Source of the DNA: Candidatus Lindowbacteria bacterium RIFCSPLOWO2_12_FULL_62_27
GTDB taxonomy: Bacteria > Lindowbacteria > 2-12-FULL-62-27
DNA: 64,000 nucleotides
Assembly (NCBI GenBank): GCA_001784175.1
Contig: MFPR01000028.1
Span: 131,606-195,605 of the forward strand
Direction: 5' to 3'
Part shown: in pieces, positions 1,038 through 19,004 of the stretch
Layout: each line of letters starts with the position of its first letter
Numbering within the stretch: position 1 is the first letter of the stretch
The notes under the pieces: generated by a model
Databases searched by the model: none
Seen by the model: the letters and a program-made list of their open reading frames with translations, nothing else
What the model was told of the DNA's origin: nothing
Program-made: the position numbers and the translations under genes

Positions 1038-2386
1038 TCAGATCACCTCCGCTTTCCGATTGGCTCGCGTCCAGCAGATGACGCGGCCGTCTTCGCCGCA
1101 GGACGCCAGTTTCTCGCCGTCCTTCGAAACCGATATGCCGCGCACGGCGCCGTCATGGCCGTCGAGCGTTCCGATTGTGCGGCCGGTCCGGACATCCCAA
1201 CAGCGGATCATCCGGTCGGCGCCGCCCGAGATAAGGAAGGCGCCGCTGGGATCAAACGCCAGCGCATGCACAGGCGCGCCAGCTGTGATTTTTACGGCGG
1301 GCTTGAAGGACGCCGCATCCCACACAAAGATCACGCCATCGTCGCCGGCCGAGGCTATCCATTTTCCGTCCGGCGAAACGTGGACCGCGTTAACGTCGTT
1401 GGTGTGGCCGTGCAGAACCGCATCGCAGGTTCGGTTGGCGATGTTCCATATACGAACGCTCATGTCCGCCGACCCTGAAACGAGCGTTCGACCGTCGGTG
1501 GAAAAAGCGACGGACAGGACCTTGCGCCGGTGGCCTTCGAGGCAGGCTGCCGAGGACTGCGCCGCTACGTCCCAGACAATGATGTCTCGTTTGCCCAGGC
1601 CGAGGGCGATATATTTCCCACCCGGATCGGCCGCAATCGAATAGAAGCGGGTTTTTGAGTTCAGTACAAACGACTTTTCAACCTCGCCCGACCTGGAGAT
1701 GGTGTACAGCAATTTCGAAAACTCGTCCGGCAATGTCGCATCCGTATCGGCGAACTCGACAGGTGTGGCGCCCTTGGACGAAACGTGAATGTTGAACAGC
1801 AGCACGCCGCCGTCCTTGCTCGCGAGGTTCTTGAGCGCGTTGGCGGGGCTCGTCGGATCGCCGTCCGTCGCCTCTCCGTCCGTGATGTTGATCACGATGG
1901 TGGAAAGCCGTTCGGATGCTGGGCGATCCACTCGGTCAGCACTCGCTCGGCCTGCGTCAGCGCCTGGCACATGGGCGTGCCGCCGTTGGCGACCGCGTCA
2001 AACCAGATCGGAAATTTCACCGTCTGATCGACCAGCCCGCCGGCGCCGTCGTCCACTTTTTTCGTCCGCTCCTCCATGCGCGCCGGATGGTCGGCGATTT
2101 CGCTGATCGGCGCCAGCGTTTTTCCGGAGAGTGAATTGTTGAACGCGGGTCCGACCGCCGCGCCGTAGCCGATGACGCCAACGTGATAGTAGTCCCGGAT
2201 TCCCTCCGACTTGGCGCACTTGATCGCCAGATTCTGAAGCAGCCGGTTGACGGCGTCCGCCACGCCTTCGGACTTCGGCCTGGCCGTTCCGTTCGTGCCG
2301 AACGTGTCGGACATTGATCCCGACTGATCGATCAAAAACAGGAAACAGCTCGGATTTGTTCGACTGATCTCCGCTGTGTACGGCAT
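1038..2386 (-). pseudogene. vWA domain plus WD40 repeat protein, interrupted by a 1-nt frameshift near 1898-1903
   Basis: ORF 1892..2386 has vWA motif FLIDQSGSMS and ends ...AQHPNGFPPS*; ORF 1038..1970 continues with IVINITDGEATDGDP and WD40 blades (VSGSADMSVRIWN, LISGGADRMIRCWD). Restoring one base gives HPNGFPPIVINITDGEATDGDP. Confidence 0.8.
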
Positions 2387-2489
2387 TCGATCCTCACCTC
2401 CCTTTTTTGTGCCCGCCGAGGGCGGGATTTGCGATCCACTTTGAATAAATGCCGCCTTTGGTCGTTTTTCCGGCTTTCGGCGGCTATTC

Positions 2490-3506
2490 TCAGCTGACGT
2501 GAAATATCCGGTCCGTCCACCCCCGGCCGTTTTGTTCCGCGCAGTGCCAGGCCGACTCGTTGTTCATCCAGCACCACTTTTGCTCGTCCTTCCTGTAATA
2601 CCAGTCGCGATCCTGCAGGTAGTAAATCTGCCGGCCCCGGCGCTCGAGAATGTGACAAATCAGGTTGTCGTGATGGTGTTCCTCGTCGATATCGCTCCGC
2701 AGAAACTGCCCCATGGTCGAGTACAGTTCGTTCAATTTTCGCAGGCCCGACTCGATTTCAGGGTCTATGGCTTTGACGTTCAACCCCAGCCGCGCCGCTT
2801 CGCGCGCCGTGATCGGATACGAATGGGAAGGATAGGCCGAATTGAGTTCCCGGCTGATTCGCTCCGCTTTCTCACCGTCGGACATGTGATAGCTCAACAG
2901 TTCCTTGCAGATGCGGATCGACAGCGAGCTGGCCCGATCCACGGCGCCGATCACCAGCGGATGGATGTACTTGTACACCTCCGGAAACGGATTGCCGTTC
3001 GGGTGCTCGTTCCACAGCCTGATGATCCGCGACATTTCGTCGTGGCTGACGGATACGGGATCCTTGTCCGAGTCCGTCGGCGAGAGCGGGTGGCGGAGCG
3101 ACACGTCGACGGCCGTGAGAAACGAGCCGGGTCCCATGTGAATCTCGTCGCACCCGAGCGCCAGCATCGTCGCCGCCGAGGCGCATTCGAACGGCGCGAA
3201 CAGAATCACGCGTTTGTAGTAATTCCGGAGAAAGTGAATGAATCGGAGCGCCTCGTGCCCGCTGCCGCCGTCCGACTTGACGGACAGCCCAATGGTGTCG
3301 GCGTGGGCCGCTCGATCCACCACGTGCGCCAGCGCGTCAACATCGCTGTGCCCGATTTCACAGTTGGACGAATGCCAGAACGCAATCACGGGATAGCCCT
3401 GGATTTCCTCGAGCGCCTCCAGAATGGGTTGCGTCTGCTCCGTCAACACCGGGGACTTCTTCGGCGCCGCATGGGACGCCCCGCGTTCGGCGGTTTTCTT
3501 GTTCAT
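2490..3506 (-). CDS. SDH-type / ClpP-SppA-fold serine protease-like protein
   Basis: Start MNKKTAERG preceded by AAGGAGGAGAAAAA; DGGSGHEALRFIHFLRNYYKRVILFAPFECASAATMLALGCDEIHMGPGSFLTAVD resembles SDH-protease/ClpP-fold enzymes. Confidence 0.75.
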   Translation of the reverse strand: MNKKTAERGASHAAPKKSPVLTEQTQPILEALEEIQGYPVIAFWHSSNCEIGHSDVDALAHVVDRAAHADTIGLSVKSDGGSGHEALRFIHFLRNYYKRVILFAPFECASAATMLALGCDEIHMGPGSFLTAVDVSLRHPLSPTDSDKDPVSVSHDEMSRIIRLWNEHPNGNPFPEVYKYIHPLVIGAVDRASSLSIRICKELLSYHMSDGEKAERISRELNSAYPSHSYPITAREAARLGLNVKAIDPEIESGLRKLNELYSTMGQFLRSDIDEEHHHDNLICHILERRGRQIYYLQDRDWYYRKDEQKWCWMNNESAWHCAEQNGRGWTDRIFHVS

Positions 3507-3751
3507 TTTTTCTCCTCCTTGTGGATTTTGGGCGGCTCGACGCCGCGAAGGTCCGTCTGCATAAACGGCCCGATTCCCTTTCCATATTGTGTTTTCAAAG
3601 ATCCCATCGCTGCTCCAACCTGAATAAATGACGCCATCCGCAAATATTCCGGAGGGACGCACAACATTTTCAACCGAAGGCCGCCCTTCCGCCGCCGCAT
3701 ATACTGAAATGGCCCTCCCTCTCACACTGGATCGCCCGGTGGATGTGAGGA

Positions 3752-4267
3752 TCATGTCGAGAACATCCGGGCGGCGTTGAAGGCGGCGACGGTGTTGAGG
3801 CCGCGGTAGGCTTCGACGATCATGGATCGGCCGCCGCAGTCCAGATGCTCTCCGGCGATCTCGCCGAAGCGCCGGTTGGAGACCTGAATCTGGCGCGCCG
3901 TCGCCCGCACCCCGTAGAGCCGCGCTTCGGCGGGATCCGAGATGAACATGCCCGTGTGGAATGGCGATTGGAGTTTGTGGGCGCGGACAAATTGATCGGC
4001 ATGGCACCAGATGCAGACGCAAATTTTCTCCCGCAAGTCCGGAACCAGCCGCTTGTCGACGGCGAAATCACCCATCCGGTAGTCGAACAGCCCATCGGGC
4101 GAGCCGTGTCCCAGCAGGATGACGCGCGCGTGACGGGCCATGGCGGCCCGCAGAGCCGTTTCTGTCAGCGCATCGGCTTGTCGGGCGACCATCCAGTTTC
4201 GCCCCGCGTAGATGCCCGCGAGAAATTCAGTGGAGGGATCGCCCGGATGGACCACCAGTGTCTTCAT
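3752..4267 (-). CDS. Small protein with caspase-like His/Cys pattern
   Basis: MKTLVVHPGDPSTEFL...VILLGHGSPDGLF...ICVCIWCHADQFVR...TGMFISDPAEA: GHG and WC motifs after hydrophobic strands, as in caspase/C13-like folds. Confidence 0.6.
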   Translation of the reverse strand: MKTLVVHPGDPSTEFLAGIYAGRNWMVARQADALTETALRAAMARHARVILLGHGSPDGLFDYRMGDFAVDKRLVPDLREKICVCIWCHADQFVRAHKLQSPFHTGMFISDPAEARLYGVRATARQIQVSNRRFGEIAGEHLDCGGRSMIVEAYRGLNTVAAFNAARMFST

Positions 4268-4790: not shown

Positions 4791-6608
4791 ATGGAGAAAC
4801 TATCGGCGGGTTTGTCGGAGAAAGAGATCCGGCGTGTGCTGACGGGGTCGCTGACCGTATTGGGCAGATCGAAACTCGATCTGCTCTTCGCAAAACTCGG
4901 TCCCGAAACCGGTCGATCCCTTCGGCGAATCCTCCATTCGTCCAGGCAAAATCGCGAGTTGCGCCGCAGTCCCGACAAGATCCGGCAGGAATGGACGCGG
5001 GCGTGGGAGGAATGGGACGATCGATTCTCTGCCGCCGGCGATGAGCAAGGGCCATACGTGTCCCAGGACGCCGACTGGGAGCAACCCTACTTCGACCACG
5101 AATCTCTGATAAGTGACTTGGAACCGATTGCGGCAAAGATGGGGAAACTTCTGCCTCGGGTGTTCGATGAGGGTCTTGATCCGGAATTCAGTTTCGCCGA
5201 GGCGGTCAAAAAGAGCGTTGAGGATTTCTCGTCCAGCCTTCCGGAGTGGCTGAATCCTTTCGAAACGGACGGATTCGGGTTGGGTCCTCAAGCGACGGCC
5301 TGCCTTCTGGATTGGGAGCGGCGAGCCGACCGCCCGGCCTTTCAGCTCATCGACGATCTTCGGCGGCTGGAGGCCGACATCGGGAATTTTTATCTGGACG
5401 AAGGCGCGGTCGTCCGGTTTGTCCGCTCCCTGTCCACGGAGGACAAGAAAGAAATCCAGCGCGGAATGCGGTCGAACCGTCAGGAGGCTCACTGGCGCAA
5501 GGCTCTGGACAATGCGCGCTCCACCTGGTTTCGCATCTACAAGGAACTGTCCCGCGGCCACGACCGCGCGGGCTATCTGGAAAACTGCGAGGCTAAAATT
5601 GATCAGGATTGGACGTTGGCCCTGCCTGTGATTCGCAATCTGCAAAGCAGGAAGGATCATTCGAAAGTCGTGGAGGTATGCGGGAGGGCGTTGCGCTCAG
5701 TATTGGGATCTTGGGATGCAAAGACATGGGATCCGAAAGAAAAACTGATCGGCCTTTGGGTCGGCCGCGCCGCCGACGGCAAGCCGGATGCCGGAGTCAT
5801 TCAGATTCTGCGCGCGTGGGAAGAATCCGCGGAAGCCATGGGTCAAGCCGATCTGGCCGCGGCGATCCATCTTCAGGCGGATTTGCTTCCGGACTGGCGT
5901 AACTGGGATAAGGCTCTGTCGGCATTCCGCCGTCAGCCCATGGAGTCGTTCCCCAAGATGCGGGAATGCCTTTATGAAAAATGGCGCGTCCGGGTTACCG
6001 AAGAAAGCATGCAAAGGTGTGTCATCGACTCCATTGAACGCGCGGAAATTTCCCAATGGATCCCTGCGCTTGCGGATGCGGCGCGGAAAAGCGAGAGTGG
6101 GTCAACGGTGTTTTCCGATCAGATCCGTCCGTGGCTGCGACAAATGGATGAAGGCCGGGCGGCCGTGCGCATATCCATCAATGACATCGCCCGGCTCACC
6201 TTGGATCTGGATGGCGCCTCGTGGCTTCGGCGCGAGTCTCCGACGCTGGTCCGCCTGCTGGCTTACGGCTGGAACGACGATCCGGCCCTGCGCGCCTCCC
6301 GGCGCAAGTGGCTGGAACATTCAGGCGGCCCTGCGTTGATCCCCGACCTTCTCGGATTCTGGCGCCGGAATACCGAACGGCTCGTTCCTGACCCGAAAGA
6401 CGCCGAATCGTCCAACTACGACCGTTGCGCGGACTGGGTTCGCGCCCTGCACGAGATTCAGCCGGCCTCCGGCCGGAAACTTCTCGCCGGCTGGTCAACC
6501 CTCCACCGCCGCCGGAAGAATCTGTGGTGTGCGCTGCGCAAGCGCGGCCTGCCCGTTCCCGGCGCGCCCACAGGAAAGATACTCCCCCGGCAAACGGCCA
6601 CGGCCTGA
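4791..6608 (+). CDS. Hypothetical protein (~605 aa), Trp-rich
   Basis: Long ORF; ATG preceded by GGAGAGAGGAAAGG; no family recognised by eye. Confidence 0.7.
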   Translation: MEKLSAGLSEKEIRRVLTGSLTVLGRSKLDLLFAKLGPETGRSLRRILHSSRQNRELRRSPDKIRQEWTRAWEEWDDRFSAAGDEQGPYVSQDADWEQPYFDHESLISDLEPIAAKMGKLLPRVFDEGLDPEFSFAEAVKKSVEDFSSSLPEWLNPFETDGFGLGPQATACLLDWERRADRPAFQLIDDLRRLEADIGNFYLDEGAVVRFVRSLSTEDKKEIQRGMRSNRQEAHWRKALDNARSTWFRIYKELSRGHDRAGYLENCEAKIDQDWTLALPVIRNLQSRKDHSKVVEVCGRALRSVLGSWDAKTWDPKEKLIGLWVGRAADGKPDAGVIQILRAWEESAEAMGQADLAAAIHLQADLLPDWRNWDKALSAFRRQPMESFPKMRECLYEKWRVRVTEESMQRCVIDSIERAEISQWIPALADAARKSESGSTVFSDQIRPWLRQMDEGRAAVRISINDIARLTLDLDGASWLRRESPTLVRLLAYGWNDDPALRASRRKWLEHSGGPALIPDLLGFWRRNTERLVPDPKDAESSNYDRCADWVRALHEIQPASGRKLLAGWSTLHRRRKNLWCALRKRGLPVPGAPTGKILPRQTATA

Positions 6609-6614
6609 CCGACC

Positions 6615-7283
6615 ATGGCGCGCACGACAGGCCCTGTTTACATCACAAACCTGTTGCATCTGTTTCCGGCCGATCCCGAATCCGTCATTCCGGATAAGGC
6701 GCTCAAACTTCGAGAATTTTTGGGACTCATCGTCAGAACGGCCACTGCCGTAATGGCCGAAACCGATATCGCCGCCGGCATCCGATGCAGGAGCAGGATG
6801 CATCGGAAAAAGTGTACCGGATTTCTGCTTATCCAGCGCCAGGATGTTCCCGGACCCTTCATCCACTGGGCTTGTGATCGGTGCGGCTCCGGCGGCAGAA
6901 TTGAGGGATTTGCAGGATCCCCTTATGACCTCTCCCGTTTTCGTAACGGTCTGGGGAGCGGTGATGGAGGCGAACGCATACAAGTCGAGATCACACCTGA
7001 CGAATACAACTCCCTCATCGCCGGAAAATTCATCCCCTACGACCCCGATTCGGAACGAATCATTTTTTCAGCCCGCTACTACGAAGAAACGGTCCAGCTC
7101 GAAGCCGCCGCCGATGACCTCGATACCCTCGGAGACTGCGTTGCCGCCGACGCAAATCATGAGAAAAACCGCAAACGGGCAAAACATGTACAATCCATCT
7201 TCCAAAAAATTACAGTCGCGCTCGATATGGATTCCCGCCGATCAAACGGGGACTGCCGAATCCGGTCAGGCTGGACGCACTGA
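6615..7283 (+). CDS. Hypothetical protein with two Cys pairs (possible zinc site)
   Basis: GIRCRSRMHRKKCTGFLLI...IHWACDRCGSGGRI; the 3' end may read through into adjacent fragment DNA. Confidence 0.5.
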   Translation: MARTTGPVYITNLLHLFPADPESVIPDKALKLREFLGLIVRTATAVMAETDIAAGIRCRSRMHRKKCTGFLLIQRQDVPGPFIHWACDRCGSGGRIEGFAGSPYDLSRFRNGLGSGDGGERIQVEITPDEYNSLIAGKFIPYDPDSERIIFSARYYEETVQLEAAADDLDTLGDCVAADANHEKNRKRAKHVQSIFQKITVALDMDSRRSNGDCRIRSGWTH

Positions 7284-7615
7284 CTGTGGGAGAGGGTAAC
7301 CGATGTCGTATGTGAGGGGCATGTGGCGGCCGTACGTGCCGGACCGGAATGATCCGCTGTACGCGTGCAGCGAGCCGCATACGAAGGTGTCCTCCATGAG
7401 GGCGTAGTAGGATTTGACGGTGTTGCGGCTGACGCCCAGCGCGCTTGACAGCGTGCTGTAATTGACGATTTGCCCGTCGTACGCGCCGGCCACCATGAGA
7501 AATTTTCCGAATGTTCCGATGATTGAAACCAGATTCTCCCGCCGGATTTCATTTTCCACGTACGTGGCCGAGTAATTTTCCAGCAGTTCAAACGCGTCCG
7601 CATCTTTGGGCGTCA
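7266..7615 (-). pseudogene. DUF4143 (AAA+ ATPase C-terminal region) fragment
   Basis: YSATYVENEIRRENLVSIIGTFGKFLMVAGAYDGQIVNYSTLSSALGVSRNTVKSYYALMEDTFV matches DUF4143; no ATPase domain upstream. Confidence 0.7.
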
Positions 7616-7680
7616 GGCACTGTTCTGAATGTCAGGCATAGGTTTATTTGCCGGCGAGTGTGCGGAGGCTCACGTCAGAA

Positions 7681-7787
7681 TGAAGCGCTCCGATTTCGAC
7701 GTTGCCGCCATCCGGTCAACCAGGGACTGGGGCGTGTCGGCACGAACGAGGGCGCTGACCGCATCGGTATCGAACAGATACATAAGG
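7681..7787 (-). pseudogene. VapC-like PIN toxin, N-terminal remnant
   Basis: MYLFDTDAVSALV...SLVDRMAATSKSERF aligned to the intact copy at 12605..13009, then homology stops. Confidence 0.7.
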
Positions 7788-7789
7788 GC

Positions 7790-8038
7790 CTAAAAGCGCA
7801 CGGCCCGCGGCTTGTCTTTGCGGCGGCCCGACACGATCGAATTCATCGTCCGGAAAAATGGATGTCCCGGGGCCAGCCAGCCTTTCCAGTCCCGCGGCCA
7901 GCGCTCATCCTCCACCCGGATCAACTTCGCGACCGGCCGGCCGCGGCGCGTGATTAGAAATTCCTCGCGACCATACGCCACCCTTCCGAGTAGAGCCGAC
8001 AACCGCTTCTTGGCCTCCGCAACGCTGATCGACACCAT
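7790..8038 (-). CDS. Phd/YefM-family antitoxin (copy 1)
   Basis: MVSISVAEAKKRLSALLGRVAYGREEFLITRRGRPVAKLI; near-identical to 13016..13264; AAAGGAGG upstream. Confidence 0.85.
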   Translation of the reverse strand: MVSISVAEAKKRLSALLGRVAYGREEFLITRRGRPVAKLIRVEDERWPRDWKGWLAPGHPFFRTMNSIVSGRRKDKPRAVRF

Positions 8039-8058
8039 GGGTCACATCCTCCTTTATA

Positions 8059-8071
8059 GGTCATTATGACC
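8059..8071. promoter_or_regulatory. Palindromic candidate operator GGTCATTATGACC (copy 1)
   Basis: Perfect GGTCAT-T-ATGACC palindrome upstream of the antitoxin, beside TATAAT on the minus strand. Confidence 0.6.
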
Positions 8072-8104
8072 ATTATAGGCCATATCCCCTGCGGCCTCAA
8101 ATTC

Positions 8105-8276
8105 ATCGATCCGGCGCATTGTCCGTCCACTTCGCCTTTTTGGCGTCCACGAGCCGCATCGGTTCGATTCCCGCCTTGAGCGCCCCCATCACGATGCGCG
8201 CGCAGGCTGTGGCGTCCGACAGCGCGTTGTGATGGTTCAGCCGGATCCGGAATCTGCGGCATACATCGGGCAACTT
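8105..8276 (-). pseudogene. DnaQ-family 3'-5' exonuclease, C-terminal fragment 1
   Basis: Frame reads KLPDVCRRFRIRLNHHNALSDATACARIVM..KAG, the ExoIII motif region. Confidence 0.75.
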
Positions 8277-8282
8277 GGAGAT

Positions 8283-8645
8283 TTAAGGCCATTCGATCAT
8301 TTTGCCGGAGTCCGGGTGAATGGGATTGACGCTCCAATATTTTTCAAAATGGCGCATATATTCTTTGGCCCGGGACTGTGGGATAGTCACGAGGACCACG
8401 GCGAGGTTCGAGGCCCGAAGCCGACCGGCGGCGGAGACGGCAAATCCTCTGTCCCGCGTCAAGAGAACCTGATATTTTTCACAGGCTTTTTCGACCAATT
8501 CGCCGTTGGTGATCTCATCCCACTTCTCCTGTCTGACGGTGGAGCAGGAGATGCCTTTGGCGCTGAGCCACTCCGCCAACCGGGCCGGCATATTGTGGTC
8601 AAGCAGCCAGTTTCGGATCGGGTTGGCTGAGTCGGTCGGCTGCAT
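8283..8645 (-). CDS. DUF5615-like PIN-domain toxin
   Basis: NWLLDHNMPARLAEWLSAKGISCSTVRQEKWDEITNGELVEKACEKYQVLLTRDRGFA; true start may be internal because the ORF overlaps the antitoxin by 47 nt. Confidence 0.75.
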   Translation of the reverse strand: MQPTDSANPIRNWLLDHNMPARLAEWLSAKGISCSTVRQEKWDEITNGELVEKACEKYQVLLTRDRGFAVSAAGRLRASNLAVVLVTIPQSRAKEYMRHFEKYWSVNPIHPDSGKMIEWP

Positions 8646-8817
8646 ACTGTAGAATTTCGGGCAATGCTTCGGGCGGGAATCCTGGATAATCTTGAGCGAT
8701 TTCCGAAGCCGTCATGCCCTCGGAAATGCACTGTATGACAAAACTCACGCTAAGCCGAGTCCCATTGACCCGCGGCTGACCCCCCAAAATATCCGGATTC
8801 TGAACGATCCATTTCAT
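8599..8817 (-). CDS. DUF433 antitoxin
   Basis: MKWIVQNPDILGGQPRVNGTRLSVSFVIQCISEGMTASEIAQDYPGFPPEALPEILQYA, canonical DUF433 pattern. Confidence 0.85.
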   Translation of the reverse strand: MKWIVQNPDILGGQPRVNGTRLSVSFVIQCISEGMTASEIAQDYPGFPPEALPEILQYAADRLSQPDPKLAA

Positions 8818-8884
8818 GCCCACAGTATACTGCGGCCCGGCGACGGAAGCAACCAGCAGGCGCGCGACCGTGTTCATCTCGAAG

Positions 8885-9039
8885 CCGATGTTCCTTCCGA
8901 GCGATCTTCCCATTCTCCACGACCACCACCGCGCACGCGCTGTCACGGCCATGATCGGCCGTCTCAAAATCGATGGCGGCGAAGCGCGGGCGGCCGAGCT
9001 GATCCTCAGCCAGCGCGTTCATGGGATAGACAATTTTCA
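8885..9039 (-). pseudogene. DnaQ-family 3'-5' exonuclease, N-terminal fragment
   Basis: MKIVYPMNALAEDQLGRPRFAAIDFETADHGRDSACAVVVVENGKIARKE, ExoI motif region; the rest is absent locally. Confidence 0.7.
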
Positions 9040-15260: not shown

Positions 15261-17675
15261 CTACACAAACGCCGGGCGCGGGTCGTCTAGGAAGGCGAGG
15301 CGGCCGCCGTAGGTGGGGGGGCGCGGCGGAGATTTGGAGATCGGGCGGATGAAGAAGACTTCCGGTGAGAGACCGAAGCCTTCGGGAAGATCAGCCTCGG
15401 GCTGGCGCTCTGGGTCGGATGACGGGGCGGCGGGACGGCGGCGTTTTTCGGACTTGCCCATCGCGCGGCGGTAGTGGTCGAGACTTGCGGCGGCGCGGCG
15501 CTTGTCGCCTTGCATCTCGTAGGCGAGGGCCAAACCGCGGTGGGGTTCAGGCTGGAGATCGTCTTCGGCGAGGGCGTTGTAGAAATGGCGGATGGCGGAC
15601 TGCGGCCGGGCGGCGCGAAGATCGATTCCGCCCAGAAGAAGCTCGGTGTAGCACGATAATTTACCTCTGAAATCTCCGGCGCGGCGTTGTTTGCGCTGCA
15701 GGTCGGCGCCGGCAAGAAGCACCCAGCCGAAATCGATTTTGCGGTCGATGCGGTCGATGCGCCGCGCCATGCTGACGGCGCGGTCGATCTCGCGTTTGGC
15801 CACAGCTTCGTTGCCGCGAAAGATCTCGATATTGGCTTTCAACAGGCGAGCCGGGATGTAGTCGGGGTTGATTTTCAGACAGCGGTCCAAATACATCTCG
15901 GACTTGGCCGAGTCGCCCATCACCAGGTTTAGAATCGCGACGCGCCGCAGGTTCGTCGGGTTGGTCGGGTTCGCCATGCAGGCTTTCGTCATCCACTCAA
16001 GCGCGGTGTCCGGGCGGTTCATCGACAGATACACATCGGCGATCCGGCGGAGGAGGTAGACGTCGTGTTGATCATTCGCGTAGTTTTCCATGAGCCATCG
16101 GAGCGCGGTCTTGTACTGTTTGCGAAGAACAAAAATGTCCGATATCCACTGGAGCGTGTATTCGTTTTTAGGGTTGATCCTGTACGCTCTCATCAAATAT
16201 TTCAATGCGTCTTTGAGATTCCCCTTCCATCGGTAGATGTACGCCAGCCGCTGGAGGGTGAAGATATTGTCAGGAGCAATATCCAGCGCACGGTGCATCC
16301 ATGCCAACGCATTCTTGTCGTCGTCCATCGCCTTGTACACATATGCGATCTGGCGCATGGTCCAGACATCGCGCGGGCGCAGAGCCTGCGCGGCCTGCAG
16401 AAATTTCAGCGCCCCATCATATTTTTTCATCACGCGGCAGGCGTTGCCCAGCCACTGGATCGGCGTTGGGTTCCAGGGATCAAGGCTCCGCGCGCGCTTA
16501 AGGACGGCCATCGCATCAACCGGCCGGCCGGCGGAAAGCAGAGCCTCTCCGAGAATGGTCAGCGCATCGGCGTCAATCGGCCGGAGGCCGGCCTGTTTTT
16601 CGGCCAGATGCAGGGTCGCCTCGTGATCGATCCGTTTCATTTCCATGATCGCCGACCGGTAGAGGTACGGGTCGGACGATTTTTCATTTCTGGCTTTCGC
16701 CACAAACGGCCCGGTCATATCCAATTCACCGCGGCGGCGGTGGAATTTCGCGATGAAAAGATTGGCGTAGAAGGCCGTTTCTTTTGAACCGGCGAGGTCG
16801 CGCAACATCGGCAGGGGATCGGCCTCTTTGGTAACCGCTCCGGTGAGAAGGCTCATCGCGTAGCCGAGTTTCCAGCCCCGTGTAAGCACATGCCTATTGG
16901 ATTTTTCGAGGAAATATTCCCGCGCTTCCTTCATCCGGGTGGACATATTCATGGCTTTAAGGAAAAGCATCATCGCGGGCGCGTAGGGTCCATGCCGGTC
17001 GAGAAATTTCCGGAGTCTCGCCGATGCGCCCGCGAGATCCATGGCGTTAAACATTTTCACAGCCAGCCTGAAATCGATATGCTCGCACAAAATCTTTGCG
17101 GCGGGGCGTGCCGCGCTCCATTTCTGGTAAAGATCGAGAAGCATGTTTCGGCGGCCGAGGGGCCGTTGAGCCAAGGCTTGAAATGCGTCCCGCGCCAGAG
17201 GGTCGGCCGACTGCGCGTCCCGTTCCTGCCGCACGATCCGGCGGTCCGTCGGAATCAGGATGGGCGGGCCGAGCCGGGCGCGTTGAACCTCGCCGAGATC
17301 AACGGCCTCGCCGCCGCGGGCGATGAGCGCGGCAATCTGGTCCCGAACGGCGGAGCTGATGGCGCCTTCGTACCGGCAATTCACTTTTCGAAATGTTCGG
17401 CGCAGCATGGGCCAGCGGTTCCAGCATTGGACGGCGAACGGCCGGACGAGGCTGGATTCGGCGGAGGACACGAGGACATCGCGAGTGGCGGCGGAATCGA
17501 GGTCGAAACTGATTCCCGCGCACCAGAGGATGGGATCCCCGGGCAGAATGTCGGATGATTCTCCCAGGACGGCAAAAAATGTCTCACTATTTTTCCCGCG
17601 CCGCGCCGACCAGATTTTCCCGGCGGCGAATCGGCCCGTTCCCAGCCCCAATAACATCAATAACAGCAGCATCAC
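15261..17675 (-). CDS. Large tetratricopeptide-repeat protein with N-terminal hydrophobic segment
   Basis: MMLLLLMLLGLGTG start and multiple TPR units (ALTILGEALLSAGRPVDAMAVLKRARSLDPWNP etc.). Confidence 0.85.
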   Translation of the reverse strand: MMLLLLMLLGLGTGRFAAGKIWSARRGKNSETFFAVLGESSDILPGDPILWCAGISFDLDSAATRDVLVSSAESSLVRPFAVQCWNRWPMLRRTFRKVNCRYEGAISSAVRDQIAALIARGGEAVDLGEVQRARLGPPILIPTDRRIVRQERDAQSADPLARDAFQALAQRPLGRRNMLLDLYQKWSAARPAAKILCEHIDFRLAVKMFNAMDLAGASARLRKFLDRHGPYAPAMMLFLKAMNMSTRMKEAREYFLEKSNRHVLTRGWKLGYAMSLLTGAVTKEADPLPMLRDLAGSKETAFYANLFIAKFHRRRGELDMTGPFVAKARNEKSSDPYLYRSAIMEMKRIDHEATLHLAEKQAGLRPIDADALTILGEALLSAGRPVDAMAVLKRARSLDPWNPTPIQWLGNACRVMKKYDGALKFLQAAQALRPRDVWTMRQIAYVYKAMDDDKNALAWMHRALDIAPDNIFTLQRLAYIYRWKGNLKDALKYLMRAYRINPKNEYTLQWISDIFVLRKQYKTALRWLMENYANDQHDVYLLRRIADVYLSMNRPDTALEWMTKACMANPTNPTNLRRVAILNLVMGDSAKSEMYLDRCLKINPDYIPARLLKANIEIFRGNEAVAKREIDRAVSMARRIDRIDRKIDFGWVLLAGADLQRKQRRAGDFRGKLSCYTELLLGGIDLRAARPQSAIRHFYNALAEDDLQPEPHRGLALAYEMQGDKRRAAASLDHYRRAMGKSEKRRRPAAPSSDPERQPEADLPEGFGLSPEVFFIRPISKSPPRPPTYGGRLAFLDDPRPAFV

Positions 17676-17729
17676 ATCCTGCCTTTCACTCCGGCGCCCT
17701 ACGCCTCATCGCATCTCATATAAATGCGG

Positions 17730-19004
17730 TCATGCCGGATTATTCCGGCTGCGGACATGTTCGTGGCATTTGATCAGAACGATCCGCAAAATCTTTTCGA
17801 GGTAACGCATGCCGGTCAGAGAAATATCGAGGCTTTTTTGAATAGTCGCGACGATCTGTTTGAATTTGGCCGACGCATTTTCCAGATGTTTCGCCACCTG
17901 CGTGTCGCTCTTGCCGATCATCTGGGCGATATCGAGATTCGTCATTGCTCTTTCATCGCGCGGATCTGCGGCGCCGCCGGGCCGACGTTTCAATTCGCCG
18001 GTCGCGGGGTCGCTCATGGCGGTCAGCACGGTCAGCTGCATCGGCGTAAATGCGGTCCCGACGTCGATCATCCGTTCGACGAACTCTTCAACCTCCCCCG
18101 TGTCCGCTTCTTCCGGCGCATCGGAATCGGACTCCGGTTCCGCGAGACGCAGTTTCCGTCCGCCCTTGCGTCTGAGACCCCGACGGCTCTCGACATCCAC
18201 GTTACCCTCGACATCCGCGCCACGGTCGCCATCGTCGGTCTCATGGGATCGGCCAAGATCGACCTGCTTGCGCGGAACGAAACCGAGGACAATCGAAAAC
18301 GTGTTGGAGATATCAGAAACGGCCATGGCAAGGGGCGAGGGGTTCATTTGTGTCTTCTCGTATCCCTCGCTGAATTTAAAACTGACTTTCACGGCACGCA
18401 CAGCTTTTTGGGGCGGAAACCGGTCGCCGCGCCATTTTTGCAGGTCGACCCACTCTGATATATCGTGAAGCAGGAAACGCAGAATGACCCGATCGGGCGC
18501 GTTCCAGCCGGTACGTTTCCGGCGGCGCGGCAGGTAGTGGTCTTTCATTTGGGTATCCCTGAATTCGGCGCCGACCATGACGTATGTTCTGGTTTTCAGC
18601 GCAGTCCGGACATTGTCGAAGACGCGGTATTTCTCCTGCAGATGCTGTTCGATGTGCCGGGTGACGTCATTGTAAATGATTTTGTTGAGCTGGAACGCGA
18701 AACTCTCGGCAGGCGTTAGATGGCTAAATTCGGGTCTGTCGGGCCGCTTGTTTCTCTTTTTGTACAGCCGGTCGAGAATATCGTCCACGATTTTCTCGAT
18801 ATCGAAGACCGACGTGGCGACGACCTTGCCGGGCGTCTTCGACAATCGCCAGCCACCCGTCTTCGACAATCGCCGGCGGATTATTCCTTCGATCACCTGT
18901 CGAAGACTCTCCAAGTCTTGAGGAGATATTCGGTCGGCAAAATACGCCTCTAACCACTCGACCCTTTGATCCATCGCAGACGGCTTGGCCACCTTCGTTT
19001 TCAC
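17730..19004 (-). CDS. Sigma-factor-like / HTH protein
   Basis: LNKIIYNDVTRHIEQHLQEKYRVFDNVRTALKTRTY and C-terminal FTPMQLTVLTAMSD...MTNLDIAQMIGKSDTQVAKHLENASAKFK, a sigma4-like HTH. Confidence 0.5.
   Translation of the reverse strand: MKTKVAKPSAMDQRVEWLEAYFADRISPQDLESLRQVIEGIIRRRLSKTGGWRLSKTPGKVVATSVFDIEKIVDDILDRLYKKRNKRPDRPEFSHLTPAESFAFQLNKIIYNDVTRHIEQHLQEKYRVFDNVRTALKTRTYVMVGAEFRDTQMKDHYLPRRRKRTGWNAPDRVILRFLLHDISEWVDLQKWRGDRFPPQKAVRAVKVSFKFSEGYEKTQMNPSPLAMAVSDISNTFSIVLGFVPRKQVDLGRSHETDDGDRGADVEGNVDVESRRGLRRKGGRKLRLAEPESDSDAPEEADTGEVEEFVERMIDVGTAFTPMQLTVLTAMSDPATGELKRRPGGAADPRDERAMTNLDIAQMIGKSDTQVAKHLENASAKFKQIVATIQKSLDISLTGMRYLEKILRIVLIKCHEHVRSRNNPA

What the first reader, a model, noticed from the sequence alone, without database searches (positions are those of the whole stretch)
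1038..4267. Minus-strand set: vWA-WD40 protein, SDH/ClpP-fold protease and caspase-like protein
Seen: three consecutive minus-strand genes encode a vWA (FLIDQSGSMS) plus WD40 fusion, a protein with a ClpP/SDH-like core (ECASAATMLALGCDEIHMGP), and a ~171-aa protein with LGHGSPDGLF and CIWCHADQF after hydrophobic strands, as in caspase/C13-like peptidases. Known: vWA, WD40, caspase-like and trypsin-like modules recur in bacterial conflict and cell-death systems. Inference: a sensor/scaffold plus two proteases beside an accessory island could be a protease-based defence or stress module. I do not know this exact trio as a named system.
Basis: partly seen in the sequence, partly recalled or inferred. 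Interest (0 to 1): 0.72.

Follow-up and report, generated by a model that had tools for sequence, protein, structure and literature searches.

The report
Co-regulated caspase-fold and ClpP-fold proteases
Four neighbouring bacterial genes, two of them predicted proteases (one of a small caspase-like family shared with giant phages) and two carrying vWA-WD40 or TPR scaffold-type domains, share a promoter-like DNA element found nowhere else in this genome, which suggests they are switched on together, although the same gene set was not found in other genomes.

Summary
The three genes are real, with one correction: the vWA-WD40 "fusion" is two ORFs split by a 1-base deletion (between 1899 and 1898) relative to a 75%-identical relative. 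The vWA half is TerY-like, but the usual PP2C and kinase partners do not follow it.

3752..4267 is not in Pfam, NCBIfam, PHROGs or PADLOC. It belongs to a family of about 65 loci in IMG/VR, Lak and other huge-phage contigs and in Bacteroidales, Fibrobacter and Leptospirales genomes, with invariant GHG (His54) and WCxA (Cys88). AlphaFold (pLDDT 95.9) gives an alpha/beta fold with a hairpin after His54, and the best TM-scores are to separase and gingipain. A caspase-type cysteine-peptidase fold is therefore supported; activity is untested. 2490..3506 is an SDH/ClpP-fold protein.

The trio is not a conserved module: no co-occurrence in 65 caspase-like loci, and only base-rate weak SDH hits in 32 of their genomes. 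In this genome, however, CCGGAA-N16-CATTTAT occurs exactly four times in 4.39 Mb (0.05 expected), each time just upstream of a gene start: vWA-WD40, SDH, caspase-like, and a TPR gene at 15261..17675. I read this as a four-gene regulon of two proteases and two scaffolds. A defence role is possible but unproven.

The parts
3752..4267 (-). Caspase-like protein P0002, 171 aa; candidate dyad His54 (GHG) and Cys88 (WCHA)
   Evidence: invariant residues; AlphaFold pLDDT 95.9, pTM 0.90; best TM: separase 0.54, gingipain RgpB 0.50
2490..3506 (-). SDH-type ClpP-fold serine protease P0001, 338 aa; candidate Ser110 with invariant Asp134 and His228
   Evidence: PF01972 E 2e-8; Clp_like_SDH E 7.6e-12, below its cut-off; alignment of 8
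1892..2386 (-). N-terminal part of a TerY-like vWA domain (DQSGSMS), ends at a frameshift
   Evidence: PADLOC TerY 2e-65; 75% identity to G099
1038..1919 (-). Rest of the vWA domain plus WD40 repeats, out of frame with the previous part (one base missing between 1899 and 1898)
   Evidence: WD40 1.4e-43; TerY positions 162-230
2445..2473 (-). Element 1 CCGGAA-N16-CATTTAT, 58 bases before the vWA start codon
3624..3652 (-). Element 2 CCGGAA-N16-CATTTAT, 117 bases before the SDH start codon
4275..4303 (-). Element 3 CCGGAA-N16-CATTTAT, 7 bases before the caspase-like start codon (leaderless transcript expected if it is a promoter)
17720..17748 (-). Element 4 CCGGAA-N16-CATTTAT, 44 bases before the TPR gene
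15261..17675 (-). TPR-repeat protein, 804 aa, fourth gene behind the shared element
   Evidence: (TPR_2 1.3e-23)
17730..19004 (-). Orphan 424-aa protein with an HTH-like C-terminus, directly upstream of the TPR gene; possible regulator, unproven
   Evidence: no homologue in 290 genomes searched; HTH_24 only E 0.04

Best explanation
A genome-specific, co-regulated set of four genes. A promoter-type element (CCGGAA-N16-CATTTAT; the geometry resembles alternative, ECF-like sigma promoters) drives vWA-WD40, SDH, caspase-like and TPR genes together. The most likely action is regulated proteolysis in response to stress or invasion. The vWA MIDAS, WD40 and TPR parts bind and gather substrates or partners. 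A small caspase-fold cysteine peptidase makes specific cuts and a ClpP-fold SDH serine peptidase digests further. Shown here: gene identities, the shared unique element, a confident model whose best fold matches are clan CD peptidases, and invariant His and Cys. Inferred: that the element is a promoter, that either enzyme is active, that the four products work together, and the trigger.
For: The element occurs 4 times exactly in 4.39 Mb with 0 for the reversed control on the forward strand and 2 on the reverse at one mismatch, and about 0.05 exact sites are expected. It is the only 6+gap+7 dyad shared by the three upstream regions, against 0 of 3000 shuffles and 0 of 3000 random triples; the fourth site came out of a search and is also upstream of a gene. 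There are no sigma-70-like sites before the three genes. The caspase-like model has pLDDT 95.9 with the best TM-scores to separase 0.54 and gingipain 0.50, while flavodoxins reach only about 0.41. Weak Pfam hits to C25 in 4 members and C50 in 2 agree with this. For SDH.
Against: Homologues of the three genes do not co-occur elsewhere, so the partnership may be recent or only regulatory. The vWA-WD40 gene is frameshifted as assembled. No Foldseek hit has E below 0.001 and the TM-scores are only about 0.5. The element's function is inferred from position and sequence; the presumed regulator has no recognised domain.
Confidence: 0.55

Rival explanations
1. Anti-phage or cell-death module: infection derepresses the regulon and the two proteases kill or arrest the cell.
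For: TerY-P-like vWA modules are reported in defence loci (PMC11090510) and caspase, Clp-like, vWA, TPR and beta-propeller parts recur in predicted conflict systems (PMC7159879). The caspase-like family is spread between phages and bacteria. Toxin-antitoxin type genes lie nearby.
Against: No PADLOC match except the vWA (the WD40 half also matches a HEAT-ARM model through its repeats). No MoxR, STAND, PP2C or kinase partner was recognised beside the genes. The trio is not conserved. Family members sit in phage genomes themselves, which fits counter-defence or metabolism as well.
Confidence: 0.25
2. The genes are unrelated neighbours: a decaying TerY gene, an SDH protease and a phage-derived caspase-like gene, sharing only a common promoter class of this lineage.
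For: Frameshift in the vWA gene; no co-occurrence elsewhere; the nearest caspase-like rows in the tree are mostly huge-phage sequences; a few one-mismatch sites lie elsewhere in the genome, one at another gene start.
Against: The exact element is restricted to these four genes within 15.3 kb of a 4.39 Mb genome, which is not how a common promoter class would look.
Confidence: 0.3
3. 3752..4267 is a flavodoxin- or Rossmann-like non-peptidase.
For: Flavodoxins such as 1rli take the top Foldseek ranks by E-value.
Against: Their TM-scores (about 0.41) are below those of separase and gingipain. The hairpin after strand 3, with His54 at the end of that strand and Cys88 at the end of strand 4, fits the caspase-haemoglobinase topology. 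In the genome set the His was not part of the scan pattern and is still invariant.
Confidence: 0.12

Closest known systems
Clan CD peptidases (separase C50, gingipain C25, caspases C14)
   Same: Strand order, hairpin after the His strand, candidate His-Cys pair 34 residues apart; best TM-scores in the PDB
   Different: Only 171 aa, no sequence family match above any cut-off; found in huge phages and gut or aquatic bacteria
SDH-type serine proteinase (PF01972, NF047768)
   Same: ClpP-fold core with the Ser110 motif; passes the Pfam cut-off
   Different: Far below the NCBIfam equivalog cut-off (45 against 250 bits); belongs to a subgroup with a conserved Trp-rich C-terminal tail shared by Ideonella, G187 and G241
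TerY-P triad (vWA, PP2C, kinase)
   Same: vWA domain 75% identical to one in such a triad
   Different: No PP2C or kinase follows; the vWA continues into WD40 instead
vWA-MoxR beta-propeller ternary systems (PMC7159879)
   Same: Beta-propeller repeats C-terminal to a vWA domain, and a TPR protein in the set
   Different: The vWA is of the TerY type, no MoxR AAA+ gene was recognised beside it, and proteases are present, whereas those systems show no conventional effector modules
ARG-centred ADP-ribose systems (PMC9503650)
   Same: Several Bacteroidales homologues of the caspase-like gene lie beside DraG, NrtR-Nudix, NADAR or DUF1810 genes
   Different: None of these was recognised beside the window genes

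Membership tests
Clan CD cysteine peptidase | Caspase-haemoglobinase fold | tested here: met
   AlphaFold pLDDT 95.9 and best TM to separase and gingipain; TM only about 0.5, so fold-level support, not proof
Clan CD cysteine peptidase | Conserved His and Cys at the ends of strands 3 and 4 | tested here: met
   His54 and Cys88 invariant in 48 sequences; Cys is partly imposed by the scan pattern, His is not in the genome set
Clan CD cysteine peptidase | Proteolytic activity | not testable with these tools
   Needs an enzyme assay
SDH proteinase PF01972 | Profile score above the curated cut-off | tested here: met
   34 against 31.3 bits
SDH proteinase NF047768 (equivalog) | Profile score above the curated cut-off | tested here: not met
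   45.2 against 250 bits
TerY-P triad | vWA gene next to PP2C and a Ser/Thr kinase | tested here: not met
   vWA is TerY-like but the neighbours are WD40, SDH and caspase-like genes
vWA-MoxR beta-propeller system | Adjacent MoxR AAA+ ATPase | tested here: inconclusive
   None recognised by eye among ORFs of 1-34 kb and the 20 kb upstream; no profile search for MoxR was run
Conserved three-gene defence module | Co-occurrence of the three families in other genomes | tested here: not met
   0 of 65 loci; 3 of 32 genomes with only weak SDH hits against 49 of 386 in general

The most novel reading that the evidence does not exclude
A phage-exchanged, un-named family of minimal caspase-fold proteases works in this bacterium together with an SDH protease and vWA-WD40 and TPR scaffolds as a dedicated regulon under its own sigma-like factor (17730..19004): a proteolytic defence or cell-death programme of a new composition.
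Probability: 0.15. Interest if true: 0.82.

Novelty: new variant of a known kind. Interest (0 to 1): 0.52.

Why it matters
The caspase-like family has no profile in any library searched, yet is frequent in huge phages (Lak phages among them) and in gut bacteria, so a role in phage-host conflict becomes testable. The shared element shows a way to find functional partners that gene-neighbourhood conservation misses.

Tried and rejected
A structure of P0002 without an alignment was useless (pLDDT 36). A scan of IMG/VR with the single sequence found nothing. No relatives of P0002 turned up in plasmids or in 144 other genomes of the relatives set; the host phylum holds only 3 genomes. The BFVD fold search gave no clear hit. 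No Rfam family lies in 1-20 kb. The first element pattern, with a wrong spacer, found nothing. Sigma-factor identity of 17730..19004 could not be supported.

Full report
Observation. 2490..3506 is a ClpP-fold SDH-type proteinase (Pfam PF01972; NCBIfam Clp_like_SDH below its cut-off). 1038..2386 holds a TerY-type vWA that continues into WD40 repeats, but it is two ORFs. Against a 75%-identical vWA gene of genome G099 the window lacks one base between 1899 and 1898. Whether this is an assembly error or a broken gene cannot be decided here.

The caspase-like protein. P0002 has no significant match in Pfam, NCBIfam, PADLOC, PHROGs or the PDB by sequence. tblastn found relatives in Lak megaphages and in a gut contig labelled as phage. 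An alignment of these reached 25 IMG/VR contigs and 40 bacterial genome contigs, mostly Bacteroidales and Fibrobacter plus one Leptospirales. The pattern GHG...GL...W-C-x-A-x-x-F...M...E...N is conserved. The genome scan pattern contained WC[YH]A, so Cys conservation there is partly imposed; the GHG motif was not in that pattern. With 48 sequences AlphaFold reaches pLDDT 95.9. Foldseek ranks flavodoxins first by E-value, but the best TM-scores go to human separase (0.54) and gingipain RgpB (0.50). Four members also touch Peptidase_C25 and two Peptidase_C50 in Pfam at weak E-values; ten members scanned singly did not. The tree intermixes phage and bacterial rows, and places the window's row, with moderate support, among huge-phage rows and the Leptospirales row.

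Co-occurrence. No SDH, vWA-TerY or WD40 relative lies within 8-10 kb in any of the 65 caspase-like loci. In 32 of those genomes only 3 weak SDH hits occur, about the base rate. The closest SDH relatives (Ideonella, G187, G241) lie among unrelated genes. The closest vWA relatives lie in vWA-PP2C-kinase triads or what look like such triads. The trio is therefore not a conserved module. Neighbours of the caspase-like gene in bacteria include DraG, NrtR-Nudix, NADAR, DUF1810 and A1S_2505 genes, a setting like the ADP-ribose systems of PMC9503650.

Shared element. The three upstream regions share CCGGAA-N16-CATTTAT. It is the only shared dyad of that form, with 0 of 3000 shuffles and 0 of 3000 random triples giving any. 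A search with a pattern from the first three found a fourth site at 17720..17748. In the whole genome the exact pattern occurs four times, all here; seven more places match with one mismatch, and the reversed control pattern gives two at up to one mismatch. About 0.05 exact sites are expected by base composition. The sites lie 58, 117, 7 and 44 bases before start codons. Sigma-70-like sites are absent before the three genes. I take the element for a promoter of an alternative sigma factor or an activator site. The orphan protein 17730..19004 beside the fourth site is a candidate regulator by position only; no domain supports it.

Mechanism and standing. Regulated proteolysis by two proteases with two scaffold-type partners is the reading that fits the parts. 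Defence is one possible purpose; the literature on vWA, caspase and TPR conflict systems (PMC7159879, PMC11090510) makes it plausible, but the locus does not meet the definition of any named system tested.

Noticed in passing
window 7266..8967 (-): Toxin-antitoxin-type genes: Phd/YefM antitoxin, DUF5615 PIN-like with DUF433, and a DUF4143 fragment.
   Followed up: partly
window 4791..6608 (+): A 605-aa protein divergent from the caspase-like gene without any family match.
   Followed up: no
L117 (G000:C43:98749): One-mismatch copy of the element directly at the start of a zinc-ribbon-like 166-aa ORF; possible further regulon member.
   Followed up: partly
L040, L046, L049, L056: Caspase-like genes next to ADP-ribosylglycohydrolase genes, once fused to a DSP-type phosphatase.
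   Followed up: partly
L007 5995-6990: An SDH relative in an E. coli phage-plasmid, on the strand opposite to holin and antiterminator genes, a typical place for accessory phage genes.
   Followed up: no
L008 (MT837816): Contig filed as phage but holding PP2C and transpeptidase genes; close relatives of several of its genes lie in Leyella stercorea (L051), so probably bacterial DNA.
   Followed up: partly
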